Assembly (NCBI GenBank): GCA_023379515.1
Contig: JAMCQQ010000318.1
Span: 1-5,501, forward strand
Length of the DNA: 5,501 nt
Direction: 5' to 3'
From: Actinomycetota bacterium
Lineage (GTDB): Bacteria > Actinomycetota > Humimicrobiia > Humimicrobiales > Humimicrobiaceae
Of the stretch, positions 3,100 through 5,501 are shown piece by piece. Positions within the stretch are counted from its first letter, which is position 1, and every line of letters starts with the position of its first letter. The position numbers were made by a program, and so were the translations under genes. A model generated the notes under the pieces. That model worked only from the letters and a program-made list of their open reading frames with translations. It was not told where the DNA came from and did no database searches.

Positions 3100-3116
3100 A
3101 GGCTAATTATGCAATG

Positions 3117-3190
<74 letters not shown>

Positions 3191-3198
3191 GCTGAGAG

Positions 3199-3227
3199 AT
3201 TATATCAATAGGCTAGAATTTAGGCAA
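3199..3227 (-). promoter_or_regulatory. Promoter TTGCCT-17 bp-TATAAT for tRNA-Val-adoK-ahcY
   Basis: On the minus strand a perfect TATAAT (3204 to 3199) lies 17 bases after TTGCCT (3227 to 3222). TGA precedes the -10 box, giving an extended -10 TGATATAAT. The start would be near 3192, just before tRNA position 1. No other promoter is visible before adoK or ahcY, so this probably drives all three genes. Confidence 0.8.
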
Positions 3228-3333
3228 GGAATTGGAATTTATCGCTCTTTACCCTTAAAAGACATGTGCCCTTTTAGACGATTAAGAAAGCTTTTACTGC
3301 TATTTCGCATTTCAGGAAGAGGAAAAACATTAA

Positions 3334-4185
3334 TTATACCTCGCTTATTACATCGAATCCTTTAAAGCTTCCCGTTATGGCTAGTCCAATAATATCTCCG
3401 GATACCAGGCGTTTGTTTTTAATTTGTTTTGCAGTTTCGTTCATGGTAGATCCGGATCCCACAGCATCGTCAATAAGAAGAACATTTTTATATTCTTTTT
3501 TTTCTTCGACTATAATTGTTTTTTTTGCATTTTCCATACGATCCTCAAGCTTCGAAAGAGTCTTCTGAGGGATAATAATTTCCGTTTTTATTTTTGTCAC
3601 ACTAAGAAGTCTAATTGGAAGACGTAATTTTTCTTCCAGTTCTTTCATAAACTGGATTTCGCGTTTTACCGTGGGTGGCACAAAAAGTACACCATCAATG
3701 TTTTGCTTTTTTATAATCTTGATGATTTGAGGGCGAATTTCATCAACGAGCTTACGAATCAAAGATGTGTTTTGACTTTGTTTTGCATAAAGAAGGGTTT
3801 GACCAAGTTTGGTTTTTCCAAATCTCTCAATACTGTAGAAATCTAGGTAAAAAAGCTTATCCAGGAAAACGTCTTTAAAAGTGTTTTTCATTTTTGGCAT
3901 TCCATCAATAAGATCGTTTTTTTTAAATTTATCAAATTTTTTTATAGTAGTTATGTATTCATTTGCAGTTTTTATCGGATCTTGTTTTGTCTTTTCACAC
4001 CATGCCAGAAAACCAGTCCATCCCTCCTTTGATTCACCTGTTGGAGTAATATAAAGATAATTTTCGTTAATCTTATCGAACAAATCTTGATTATGGTCAG
4101 GCAAGCGGAAAAGAATTAACCCGAATAGTTTTAACTGTTTCTTTGTTTGTCGCAAGCGAATAGTATACTTTTGGAGGTTTACCAA
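3334..4185 (-). CDS. ComF-like phosphoribosyltransferase, frame-separated from its HTH domain
   Basis: A 283-codon frame with a type I phosphoribosyltransferase domain. Seen: VLFVPPTVKRE (166-176), PQKTLSKLEDRMENA (206-220), which matches the ComF pattern with R and N, and the PRPP loop NVLLIDDAVGSGSTMNE (234-250) with the acidic pair D239/D240. ComF relatives act in DNA uptake in competent bacteria; substrate and exact role are unknown here. The frame lacks an ATG or GTG before residue 96. Its only early starts are TTG codons (4185 and later) inside the HTH gene. Residues 1-31 are an out-of-frame reading of HTH codons and of the 28-bp inverted copy, so genuine protein probably begins at N32 (4092). 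Removing the 28 bases fuses it to the HTH domain. It may be poorly expressed or a broken copy; a close paralog starts beyond the right edge. Confidence 0.75.
   Translation of the reverse strand: MVNLQKYTIRLRQTKKQLKLFGLILFRLPDHNQDLFDKINENYLYITPTGESKEGWTGFLAWCEKTKQDPIKTANEYITTIKKFDKFKKNDLIDGMPKMKNTFKDVFLDKLFYLDFYSIERFGKTKLGQTLLYAKQSQNTSLIRKLVDEIRPQIIKIIKKQNIDGVLFVPPTVKREIQFMKELEEKLRLPIRLLSVTKIKTEIIIPQKTLSKLEDRMENAKKTIIVEEKKEYKNVLLIDDAVGSGSTMNETAKQIKNKRLVSGDIIGLAITGSFKGFDVISEV
4093..4120. repeat. 28-bp perfect inverted repeat, copy at the frame break
   Basis: This segment is the exact reverse complement of 4266-4293, 28/28 bases, with mismatches immediately outside on both sides. It contains the HTH stop codon and lies exactly between the last in-frame HTH codon (R71, ending 4121) and the first convincing phosphoribosyltransferase codon (4092). 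Its length is 3n+1, which accounts for the frame change. Confidence 0.95.
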
Positions 4186-4333
4186 TTTTTTGAAGTATGT
4201 TTTTCTCAGTAAGATTTTTTAATTGTTTTCTTACCCCGCGTCCGCTAATATTTCCCAGGTGATCAGTTAATTCTTTTCCGCTTGCCTGACCATTTTTCGA
4301 AATGTAGTCAATAATTTTATTTGATGTAGACAT
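4097..4333 (-). CDS. Winged-helix DNA-binding protein, probably the detached N-terminal domain of the ComF-like gene
   Basis: A 78-residue protein with a winged-helix fold: helix 1 NKIIDYISKNG (5-15), helix 2 SGKELTDHL (18-26), recognition helix GRGVRKQLKNLTEKN (31-45) and a wing QKIGKPPKVYYSLA (48-61). This resembles ArsR/MarR-like minimal repressors, without visible metal ligands. The last seven residues (72-78) are encoded by the inverted copy of codons 14-23 of this same gene, so they are not ancestral sequence; the stop TGA 4099-4097 lies in that copy. Without the 28-base copy, R71 joins N32 of the phosphoribosyltransferase in frame, giving a 323-residue fusion. AGGA lies eight bases before the ATG. 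A palindrome covers its probable -10 box, suggesting self-repression. It could still work alone as a regulator, since the complete wing is retained. Confidence 0.72.
   Translation of the reverse strand: MSTSNKIIDYISKNGQASGKELTDHLGNISGRGVRKQLKNLTEKNILQKIGKPPKVYYSLATNKETVKTIRVNSFPLA
4266..4293. repeat. 28-bp perfect inverted repeat, copy inside the winged-helix coding region
   Basis: The partner of 4093-4120, 145 bases away. On the minus strand it encodes HTH residues 14-23 (N-G-Q-A-S-G-K-E-L-T), the turn and start of helix 2. Because this copy makes sense as winged-helix protein and the other does not, this is probably the source and the other the product. Confidence 0.95.
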
Positions 4334-4341
4334 GATATAGT
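4333..4341 (+). promoter_or_regulatory. Possible extended -10 (TGATATAGT) for the divergent nuclease unit
   Basis: TATAGT at 4336-4341 (5/6) preceded by TGA gives an extended -10 element. I see no good -35 box 17 bases upstream. A start near 4348 would place the palindrome at +1 to +20 of the transcript, so the same operator could control both directions. Confidence 0.35.
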
Positions 4342-4345
4342 TCCT

Positions 4346-4367
4346 AGTTCCTAGTTTACTAGGAACT
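4346..4367. promoter_or_regulatory. 22-bp palindrome, candidate operator
   Basis: The plus strand has AGTTCCTAGT, a TT centre, then ACTAGGAACT: ten base pairs on each side of a two-base centre, all matching. The heptamer GTTCCTA is also repeated just before it (4340-4346 then 4347-4353). The site lies between divergent genes, over the likely -10 of the HTH gene, and is the expected symmetric binding site for a dimeric winged-helix repressor. The two-base centre is too tight for an ideal RNA hairpin, which favours a DNA site. Confidence 0.6.
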
Positions 4368-4381
4368 TAACAATAAGTCAA
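4353..4381 (-). promoter_or_regulatory. Promoter TTGACT-17 bp-TAAACT for the HTH gene
   Basis: Minus-strand TTGACT (4381 to 4376) and TAAACT (4358 to 4353, 4/6 to consensus) are separated by 17 bases. The start would be near 4346, leaving a leader of about 13 bases that holds AGGA and the ATG at 4333. The -10 box is the centre of the palindrome 4346-4367, so a protein bound there would block transcription. Confidence 0.55.
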
Positions 4382-4457
4382 GGATCATTGACCAAGAGTT
4401 AAGGAGTGCACCATCTGGGACGATGTTCGAACCTATCTAATCTCCCAGATTGATCCT
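4381..4457 (+). other. Interrupted 15-bp inverted repeat, possible RNA structure in the leader
   Basis: The contiguous 15 bases 4443-4457 (TCCCAGATTGATCCT) are complementary to two separated blocks: ATCTGGGA at 4413-4420 and AGGATCA at 4381-4387. The 25 bases between the blocks (4388-4412) hold a Shine-Dalgarno-like AAGGAG (4401-4406). The 22-base loop contains the self-complementary GTTCGAAC (4425-4432). The transcript could fold into two stacked stems with the ribosome site in a bulge. Confidence 0.4.
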
Positions 4458-4520
4458 AAAGAAAAAGCTAATCTCATTGTTGCGATCTCTCATTTTAAGC
4501 AGAAGGAGGGAAAACAATGA
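4413..4520 (+). CDS. Possible 35-residue small protein upstream of the nuclease, start unclear
   Basis: A frame from 4413 to TGA 4518-4520 reads IWDDVRTYLISQIDPKEK and on to NLIVAISHFKQKEGKQ, which looks like real helical protein. Its stop overlaps the nuclease ATG as ATGA, as in a coupled operon. A strong AAGGAG (4401-4406) lies six bases before codon 4413, but that codon is ATC, not ATG, GTG or TTG. The frame is closed upstream by TGA at 4389-4391. Either a rare AUC start is used, or one base differs from an original ATG by mutation or sequencing error, or this is a gene remnant. I do not recognise a family. Confidence 0.38.
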   Translation: MWDDVRTYLISQIDPKEKANLIVAISHFKQKEGKQ

Positions 4521-5005
4521 ATTGGTTTAGATCAAAGATGCACAAATCCCCTCCCCCAGATATAGCCACGTCCATTTTATATGATGAAAAAACCTTTTAC
4601 AACAGGTTTGCACAAGATTTATTTGCTGCAAAAGAAGAAGTAATTATAGAAAGTCCTTTTATTACAACAATGCGTATGAAAGAATTAAGACCGATTTTTG
4701 AGCGACTGGTGAATAAAGGAGTAAAAGTTTATATTATGACCCGGAATCCTCGTGAGCACAGCAAGGAATATGAAGTCCAGTCGGAATCCGAAATCAGGCA
4801 CCTTGAGATATTGGGGGTGCAGGTTTTAATATGTGTAGGAAATCACCATAGAAAATTGGCTATGCTGGACAGGAAAATACTTTGGGAAGGAAGTCTTAAT
4901 ATTTTATCCCAAACGTACAGCCGGGAGATAATGAGAAGAATAGGAAGTAAGAAACTTACCGAGGAAATGTTTGAATTTCTATCTCTAAGAAAATGGATTT
5001 ACTAA
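4517..5005 (+). CDS. Single-HKD phospholipase D-superfamily protein, probable nuclease
   Basis: A 162-residue PLD-superfamily domain. The HKD motif is HHRKLAMLD, with H111, K113 and D118, followed by the usual E-G-S/N segment ILWEGSLNILS (121-131, with E124, S126 and N128). Before it come a strand and helix EVIIESPFITTMRMKELRP (41-59) and the strand VKVYIMTRNPREHS (69-82). This resembles the PLD module found at the C terminus of large helicase/AAA proteins, here free-standing. With one HKD motif it would have to dimerise to form the active site, as in Nuc and BfiI. There is no signal peptide, so a cytosolic nucleic-acid function is more likely than lipid cleavage. A consensus AAGGAGG (4503-4509) seven bases before the ATG fixes the start. 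It lies between two ComF-like genes and opposite an HTH gene, suggesting DNA processing. Confidence 0.85.
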   Translation: MNWFRSKMHKSPPPDIATSILYDEKTFYNRFAQDLFAAKEEVIIESPFITTMRMKELRPIFERLVNKGVKVYIMTRNPREHSKEYEVQSESEIRHLEILGVQVLICVGNHHRKLAMLDRKILWEGSLNILSQTYSREIMRRIGSKKLTEEMFEFLSLRKWIY

Positions 5006-5006
5006 G

Positions 5007-5015
5007 TGATATAAT
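5007..5015 (+). promoter_or_regulatory. Extended -10 promoter TGATATAAT before the small orphan gene
   Basis: A perfect TATAAT at 5010-5015 is preceded by TGA. It is the same nine-base element as in the tRNA-Val promoter. No convincing -35 lies 17 bases upstream. The predicted start near 5022 would leave about five bases before ATG 5027, giving an almost leaderless mRNA separate from the nuclease transcript. Confidence 0.45.
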
Positions 5016-5026
5016 CGGGATGAATT

Positions 5027-5263
5027 ATGAAAGACGAAGATAAAATAGTGGAAGAAATGACAAGCCTTGTCTTGGATGTCTATCATTACGCTCTGGACAA
5101 TGACATGGATATTTCTAGTCCGGATGAAGTTGCGAAAATATTAAAAGTTCTGAAACCTGAAAATTCAAAAGAAGTTGATGTTGAGGTTCTAATACAAGGG
5201 CTTGTGGCATTTGACCGGATGACAAAAACTGCAAAGGCAAAAAGAGGACAGATCGTTAATTAG
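5027..5263 (+). CDS. Small acidic protein of unknown function
   Basis: I do not recognise this 78-residue protein. It appears mainly helical: MKDEDKIVEEMTSLVLDVY (1-19), then SPDEVAKILKVL (31-42), then VEVLIQGLVAFDRMTKTAKA (53-72), with a basic end KAKRGQIVN. There is no signal peptide, membrane span or cysteine. The ATG at 5027 follows the nuclease stop by 21 bases, with a weak GGGA (5017-5020) before it. Another ATG at 5020 is out of frame and closes after seven codons. It may be read from the nuclease mRNA or from the extended -10 at 5007-5015. It converges on the ComF-like paralog with 29 bases between, which contain no clear terminator hairpin. Confidence 0.65.
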   Translation: MKDEDKIVEEMTSLVLDVYHYALDNDMDISSPDEVAKILKVLKPENSKEVDVEVLIQGLVAFDRMTKTAKAKRGQIVN

Positions 5264-5292
5264 TGTTTGCTTTTTGATACGCATTTATTTAG

Positions 5293-5501
5293 TTAGACTT
5301 CGCTTATTACGTCAAATCCTTTAAAGCTCCCTGTAATTGCTAGTCCAATTATGTGTCCATTTACTAAATATTTATCTTTAATTTGTCTTGCTATTTCATT
5401 CATTGTTGCGCCAGATCCAACCGCATCGTCAATAAGAAGTACATTCTCATAGATTCTTTTGTCGTCAACGATAATTGTTTGTCTTGCATTTTCTATCCTA
5501 T
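5293..5501 (-). CDS. Second ComF-like phosphoribosyltransferase, C-terminal 68 residues (5' end outside window)
   Basis: The minus-strand frame enters from the right edge and ends at TAA 5295-5293. It shows RIENARQTIIVDD, the PRPP loop ENVLLIDDAVGSGATMNE with the acidic pair, and a C terminus ending ITGSFKGFDVISEV. Aligned without gaps to the end of the phosphoribosyltransferase at 3334, 53 of 68 residues are identical, including the last 19 in a row. It is therefore a recent-to-moderate tandem paralog in the same orientation. Whether its N-terminal HTH domain is fused in frame lies beyond this window, and that would show what the broken copy once looked like. Most differences are conservative or at surface-type positions, which suggests both copies were under selection for some time after duplication. 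Confidence 0.85.
   Translation of the reverse strand, partial: RIENARQTIIVDDKRIYENVLLIDDAVGSGATMNEIARQIKDKYLVNGHIIGLAITGSFKGFDVISEV

What the first reader, a model, noticed from the sequence alone, without database searches (positions are those of the whole stretch)
4093..4293. A 28-bp inverted copy of its own helix-2 codons splits an HTH-ComF gene
Seen: 4093-4120 is a perfect reverse complement of 4266-4293. Deleting the 28 bases joins HTH codon R71 (ending 4121) directly to codon N32 of the phosphoribosyltransferase frame (starting 4092), in frame, giving one 323-residue protein. The insert is 3n+1 long and carries the TGA that ends the HTH frame. Inference: a templated inverted insertion (strand switching) broke a fused gene, or an assembler introduced the copy. 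If real, it is a clean snapshot of gene fission by inverted duplication.
Basis: partly seen in the sequence, partly recalled or inferred. Interest (0 to 1): 0.8.

Follow-up and report, generated by a model that had tools for sequence, protein, structure and literature searches.

The report
Inverted self-copy splits a regulator gene
A short stretch of a gene was copied backwards into the same gene, cutting a two-part DNA-binding protein into two reading frames; the related bacteria examined carry the gene whole, but without raw reads we cannot say whether the cell or the laboratory made the copy.

Summary
All 119 other proteins listed (best 120 of 3833) have the HTH and phosphoribosyltransferase (PRTase) parts on one chain. 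The 80 loci kept (of 152) have one open frame across the site and no perfect inverted repeat over 13 nt in the gene. One correction: with 28 bases left out, the linker is one residue shorter than in 88 of 90 listed relatives of the same HTH type. So the copy's first 3-6 bases were probably already there: a microhomology that could prime a strand switch, net gain 25 nt. The insertion lies between the two domains and brings both a stop for the first frame and a TTG start for the second. Cell or laboratory origin cannot be separated without reads; I favour the cell. By-product: the gene looks like a one-gene autoregulator. A palindromic operator lies upstream, usually once per genome where tested, and two recognition-helix residues predict two operator bases in 142 and 140 of 142 half-sites.

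The parts
4266..4293 (-). source of the copy: codons 14-23 of the HTH frame (end of helix 1, short strand, first part of helix 2)
   Evidence: perfect inverted repeat; same protein segment in relatives; secondary structure from the model of P0002
4093..4120 (-). inverted 28-nt copy, inserted between the two domains; its first 3-6 bases on the coding strand are probably ancestral
   Evidence: linker spacing 24 against 25 in 88 of 90 listed relatives of the same HTH type
4097..4333 (-). winged-HTH frame, 78 aa, ends at TGA 4099-4097 inside the copy
   Evidence: Pfam HTH hits
3334..4104 (-). PRTase frame, 256 aa from the TTG at 4104-4102 inside the copy (ORF listing starts it at 4185)
   Evidence: P0001; Pfam PRTase hits just below their cut-offs
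4097..4104 (-). 8-nt overlap of the possible start of the second frame (TTG) and the stop of the first (TGA), both brought by the copy
   Evidence: sequence
4346..4367 (.). 22-bp palindrome, probable operator of the HTH protein itself
   Evidence: same form upstream of 70 of 77 family loci
5293..5501 (-). 3' part of a second, paralogous PRTase gene, cut by the contig end
   Evidence: 77% identity over 213 nt

Best explanation
In an ancestor of this Levybacteria-type cell, synthesis of the coding strand passed the HTH codons and stalled in the linker about 145 nt further on. The new strand's 3' end (GTT or GTTAAT) paired with the matching bases of its own earlier product, copied 22-25 nt backwards, then returned to the original template. 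Shown: the perfect inverted copy, the fused state in the relatives examined, the position between the domains, the one-residue discrepancy, the stop and the TTG inside the copy. Inferred: the microhomology, the strand, and that it happened in the cell. The result is most likely a recent null or near-null allele: the DNA-binding half still sits behind its intact matching operator, uncoupled from the PRTase half, which would be made only by starting anew at the TTG; a paralog about 1 kb away may make the loss tolerable.
For: Perfect 28-nt inverted repeat. Fused relatives: 119 of 119 listed, 80 of 80 loci kept of 152, 7 of 7 full-length members in 82 genomes. A search with the HTH frame (candidates 43-136 aa only) found 3 proteins, one the window's own. 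Linker spacing 24 against 25 in 88 of 90 of the same HTH type; the missing position is V or I in 102 of 119 and the next D or N in 108 of 119, fitting the copy's first codons GTT AAT. No sign of decay: 0 departures from columns at least 95% conserved (median of all rows 2), terminal branches near the median, so the break is young. Such events are described in E. coli (PMC7202029, passages) and great apes (PMC7954356, passages).
Against: No reads and no second record of this species were found (best other kinase 86% identical; best other PRTase part 89%), so the allele is known from one contig. Absence of decay is also what an in-vitro artefact would show. The return junction has at most 1 nt of homology. 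The ancestral GTT or GTTAAT is inferred from amino acids, not from sister DNA, and linker length is not fixed: 24 of 119 listed relatives, mostly of another HTH type, have 24, and of the 80 loci the anchor pattern fitted only 21, with 24 to 30 residues.
Confidence: 0.62

Rival explanations
1. The copy was made in the laboratory: a strand switch of the amplifying polymerase (multiple displacement amplification or library PCR) in a molecule that became the consensus of a low-coverage contig.
For: Such chimeras are mostly inverted, often local, and usually primed by short complementarity (85% of 475 inverted; at least 2 bp in 76.8%; PMC1855051, passages), so a microhomology does not discriminate. 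The gene shows no decay. One contig only; how it was made is unknown.
Against: It needs two junctions 28 nt apart that return in register with no loss of flanks, whereas the chimeras described there are single junctions with an intervening deletion. The other inverted pairs listed in the contig are imperfect, and the kinase, SAHH and tRNA genes are intact.
Confidence: 0.27
2. A functional fission: the copy created a working two-gene operon, the PRTase being translated by termination and re-initiation at the TTG that overlaps the TGA, with a 28-bp mRNA stem opened by the first ribosome.
For: Stop and TTG both lie in the copy and overlap; both halves keep the highly conserved residues; the split falls in the loop between the HTH side and the PRTase side (residues 69-74 of the P0002 model, just after 66-69, which are below pLDDT 50); the RNA fold is far more stable than shuffles (z -7.1); the database protein P0001 starts at this TTG.
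Against: I see no ribosome-binding site before the TTG (by eye); no relative seen inherits the split; the same facts fit a recent null allele. The stem follows from any inverted copy.
Confidence: 0.1
3. An old, neutral inverted repeat of the lineage, not a recent insertion.
For: None found.
Against: Arms are 100% identical; the longest perfect inverted repeat in the same gene of the 80 loci is 13 nt; the frame is broken at this place only here.
Confidence: 0.01

Closest known systems
Quasipalindrome-associated template-switch mutations (E. coli; Ripley model)
   Same: The nascent strand serves as template, giving a perfect inverted repeat and possibly a frameshift (PMC7202029, passages).
   Different: The described events perfect an existing near-palindrome; here about 22-25 new nt were copied from 145 nt away, primed by an inferred 3-6 nt match.
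Short-range template switches in great-ape genomes (four-point model)
   Same: A reverse-complement fragment placed near its source, often creating an inverted repeat (PMC7954356, passages).
   Different: Found there by comparing closely related genomes; here a bacterial gene with no sister genome.
PurR of Bacillus (HTH plus PRTase-fold regulator)
   Same: DNA-binding domain plus PRTase-fold domain (domain order of PurR recalled); among the best fold matches (1p4a, 1o57, 7rmw).
   Different: Superposition is poor (TMq 0.24-0.28, rmsd 15.7-17.0); sequence identity 9-12%.
PsyrT / RqlH (RecQ-like helicase with C-terminal PRTase; that PsyrT is RqlH-like is recalled)
   Same: Relative P0002 aligns almost whole to the C-terminal half of the PsyrT model (residues 7-313 to 369-682 of 689, E 1.5e-17).
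   Different: Members are about 325 aa, without a helicase part; no conserved neighbour of 90 aa or more that could be a partner (commonest neighbour family in 9 of 80 loci).

Membership tests
Templated inverted insertion by strand (template) switch | inserted bases are the exact reverse complement of a nearby segment | tested here: met
Templated inverted insertion by strand (template) switch | absence of the insert in relatives | tested here: met
   80 of 80 loci kept (of 152) fused with no such repeat; 119 of 119 listed proteins continuous across the site
Templated inverted insertion by strand (template) switch | microhomology at the entry junction | tested here: inconclusive
   inferred from the one-residue gap; no sister DNA
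Templated inverted insertion by strand (template) switch | made in the cell and present in reads | not testable with these tools
   no reads; no genome held for the window
ComF family (TIGR00201) | score above the curated cut-off | tested here: not met
   28.7 bits for P0002 and P0004 and 29.4 for the window's PRTase frame against 233.55; a ComF structure is nevertheless the top PDB fold match
PsyrT / ShosT PRTases | sequence match to the model | tested here: inconclusive
   P0002: PsyrT C-terminal half E 1.5e-17, PRTase_III-A 2.3e-6, ShosT 4.6e-5; PADLOC prints no cut-off
PsyrT / ShosT PRTases | helicase part (PsyrT) or partner antitoxin gene next door (recalled) | tested here: not met
   no helicase part in the listed full-length members; no conserved neighbour of 90 aa or more within 3 kb in 80 loci; shorter partners not tested
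Autoregulated HTH-PRTase regulators (PurR-like in architecture) | operator upstream of its own gene, matched to the recognition helix | tested here: met
   by sequence only; binding not tested
Autoregulated HTH-PRTase regulators (PurR-like in architecture) | response to PRPP or a nucleotide | not testable with these tools
   a PRPP-loop-like motif is present (motif recalled)

The most novel reading that the evidence does not exclude
One template-switch event split a one-gene autoregulator at its domain boundary into a translationally coupled two-gene operon, supplying the stop, the overlapping start and a 28-bp mRNA switch in a single step: a fission caught at birth.
Probability: 0.1. Interest if true: 0.65.

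Novelty: new member of a known kind. Interest (0 to 1): 0.4.

Why it matters
If real in the cell, it is a clean, recent example of how one strand switch in a bacterium can cut a multidomain gene between its domains and bring a stop and a start with it. The by-product may matter more: members of this HTH-PRTase family carry their own operator, usually the only copy of its kind in the genomes tested, and two residues of the recognition helix predict two operator bases in 142 and 140 of 142 half-sites. That is a natural specificity code that a gel-shift assay could test directly.

Tried and rejected
Own genome: none held, so the paralog and other copies could not be examined. Another broken member: L139 (genome G473) has a frameshift in the recognition helix with the operator intact; an ordinary small indel or an assembly error, not an inverted copy. 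P0122 and P0123 (67-aa HTH-only proteins, contigs of 2850 and 551 nt) may be other linker breaks or contig ends; no DNA was available. tRNA-linked hotspot: the cassette sits beside tRNA-Val, where L122 and L123 have tRNA-Leu, and no family member lies in the stretches of 13-15 kb L121-L123; but the family loci are not enriched beside tRNAs (9 of 80 within 500 nt against 36 of 384 control pieces); dropped. Shared operon: none of seven other window frames was found in the family loci L001-L092. Viral home: 28 stretches matched a pattern but none encodes a relative; the junction sequence has no exact match there. Tandem copies as in the window: none in 91 loci with a match, re-fetched places included and many short.

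Operator counts, rows dropped: 3 of 80 loci had under 90 nt upstream. The 71 of 77 with a palindrome score of 8 or more include a few AT-rich palindromes of other form; the GTT/AAC form was found in 70 of 77, and L007, L008, L029, L040, L042, L063, L079 were left out of the code table. The exact 20-mer with one loose position was found in 4 of 8 genomes and in none of G003, G029, G030, G066. Reversed-pattern controls hit 1 of 5 genomes (G003) and 1 of 18 (G101). Held-out script: of 29 later loci, 14 were duplicates of the first 80 and 1 had no gene; of 14 new ones, 8 with a readable helix and a palindrome score of 8 or more agreed with the code (helices of L133 and L142 read by eye), L139 agreed although its frame is broken, and 5 gave no clear palindrome (L091, L135, L140, L141, L143), the best candidate of L135 (score 7) disagreeing.

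Paper searches (numbers of papers): template switch with inverted insertion, HTH-PRTase in Patescibacteria, quasipalindrome, amplification chimeras, PurR-like regulators, PRTases in conflicts, PsyrTA/RqlH/ShosTA (ten listed), gene fission (eight listed), Levybacteria PRTase.

Full report
Check of the observation. The window holds a perfect 28-nt inverted repeat, 4093-4120 against 4266-4293, 145 nt apart. About 1.4e-9 such pairs are expected, and 200 dinucleotide shuffles reached at most 20 nt.

The gene is fused elsewhere. A search with the PRTase frame returned 3833 proteins among candidates of limited length, of which the best 120 were listed. One is the window's own. The 119 others all carry the end-of-HTH anchor and the start-of-PRTase anchor on one chain, although five begin inside the HTH. 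In genomes, the best 80 of 152 loci were kept (this favours full-length members, and two, L067 and L071, lack part of the HTH at a contig end); all 80 have one open frame across the site, and the longest perfect inverted repeat in any of these genes is 13 nt. In the order of the closest genome, 24 of 82 genomes gave some match, and 7 hold a full-length member, all fused and without stops. In a sample of the phylum, 19 of 379 genomes gave 21 places: one has a small frameshift in the HTH (L139) and one is a 115-residue match (L141), so other breaks occur, but no other inverted copy was seen. A search with the HTH frame alone, which considers proteins of 43-136 aa only, found three: the window's own and two 67-aa pieces of unknown context. 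The split is therefore derived and, so far, private to this contig.

A correction to the size of the event. Between the two anchors, listed relatives have 25 residues (95 of 119) or 24 (24 of 119); in the HTH type with the RKQ helix, to which the window belongs, 88 of 90 have 25. The window without the 28 bases has 24. The missing position is V or I in 102 of 119, followed by D or N in 108. The copy begins, on the coding strand, with GTT AAT, that is V N. The simplest reading is that GTT, perhaps GTTAAT, was already there, that it paired with ATTAAC in the HTH codons, and that the net gain was 25 nt. This rests on amino acids, not on sister DNA. Against it: linker length varies in the wider family; of the 80 loci the anchor pattern fitted only 21, with 25 residues in 11, 24 in 6 and 27-30 in 4.

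Position and consequences. In the model of relative P0002 (45 sequences, mean pLDDT 87) the winged HTH spans about residues 1-61, a helix 62-68 follows whose end (66-69) is below pLDDT 50, and the next helix starts at 75; the insertion maps to the loop between them (about 72-74). The copy carries the stop of the first frame and a TTG that overlaps it, where the 256-aa database protein P0001 starts. The transcript would fold into a long stem (MFE -71.2 kcal/mol against a shuffle mean of -41.1). Neither half shows decay: no departure from any column conserved in at least 95% of relatives, and terminal branches of ordinary length (rank 74 of 115 for the HTH part, five short rows dropped, and 63 of 120 for the rest). 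The break is thus young, or the pieces are still used, or the copy is not in the living cell.

Mechanism. The anatomy is that of a strand switch: exact reverse complement, short distance, insertion at a point, no loss of flanks. On the coding strand the source is synthesised before the insertion point, so the new strand could fold back on itself. Use of the nascent strand as template is described in E. coli (PMC7202029, passages); the four-point model for apes covers the same signature (PMC7954356, passages); template switching in yeast coding genes is reported in PMC8604942 (abstract). Amplification chimeras share the taste for inversions and short complementarity (PMC1855051, passages), so the signature alone cannot exclude a laboratory origin. 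Against that: two junctions that return in register, and a contig in which nothing else looks broken by this kind of event. I put a cellular origin at about 0.72 (best explanation plus the fission rival) and a laboratory origin at about 0.27.

Where the window comes from. Kinase, SAHH, HMA and the partial first frame have counterparts in the same order in genome G034, of the order of a Levybacteria genome (kinase 74%, SAHH 89%, HMA 81%, first frame 83%), apart from the window's 140-aa frame at 471-893. In three other relatives two tRNA-Leu genes and tRNA-Val lie before the kinase (L116-L118). In the window the tRNA-Val is followed, on its 5' side, by the split gene, a PLD-like gene, a 78-aa frame and a second PRTase paralog cut by the contig end. 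The paralog could explain why the loss is tolerated (inference).

What the broken gene does. Upstream of the HTH start lies a 22-bp palindrome (4346-4367). A 10+2+10 palindrome scoring at least 8 of 10 lies within 110 nt upstream of 71 of 77 family loci, against 139 of 1540 control pieces from the same loci; the GTT/AAC form was found in 70 of 77. At up to 3 mismatches the window's type occurs once in each of 5 genomes, just before the gene; exactly, in 4 of 8. The generic form occurs once in 15 of 18 genomes, twice 37 nt apart in one, not at all in two whose palindromes depart from the pattern; I compared the positions with the loci by hand, and all lie upstream of the gene. In the 71 cases of the code table (70 loci and the window), the first variable base of a half-site is C exactly when helix residue 32 is R (142 of 142 half-sites), and the second is C when and only when residue 35 is R in 140 of 142 (exceptions: one half-site each in L023 and L035). 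Thinned to under 60% identity (36 sequences) the counts are 72 of 72 and 71 of 72. Thinning does not remove relatedness altogether. Of later loci, those with a readable helix and palindrome agree (full counts in Tried and rejected). I conclude that the protein is probably a dedicated autoregulator with an enzyme-fold sensor. In the window both the R32/R35 helix and the matching operator are intact, so the DNA-binding half may still find its site but can no longer be told what the PRTase half senses.

Family. The PRTase part resembles ComF, PurR, HPRT and ShosT folds and, by sequence, the C-terminal half of PsyrT (E 1.5e-17). In E. coli RqlH the PRTase domain is needed for toxicity but is not sufficient alone (PMC4670107, passages). 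No conserved neighbour of 90 aa or more was found, so a toxin role is not claimed.

Verdict. A true and well-described observation, a mostly right interpretation, a known class of mutation in an unusual place, unproved as a cellular allele.

Noticed in passing
4346-4367: 22-bp palindromic operator upstream of the HTH gene; the form recurs before 70 of 77 family loci, usually once per genome where tested, with recognition-helix residues 32 and 35 matching two half-site bases in 142 and 140 of 142 half-sites.
   Followed up: yes
3116-5501: Cassette of split HTH-PRTase, PLD-like gene (4517-5005; PADLOC MkoC 1.3e-12, DrmC 3.1e-4), 78-aa frame and second PRTase paralog beside tRNA-Val; no family member in the matching stretches of three relatives.
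   Followed up: partly
P0002/P0004 and P0003/P0006 (relatives): PRTase sides 84-86% identical carry HTH parts only 51-53% identical, while P0002/P0003 are 92% in the HTH, as if HTH domains are swapped between members.
   Followed up: partly
L139 (genome G473), about 1421-1520: Another family member with a frameshift in its recognition helix but an intact matching operator.
   Followed up: partly
P0122, P0123: Two 67-aa HTH-only proteins ending in the linker, from contigs of 2850 and 551 nt; other splits or contig ends.
   Followed up: no
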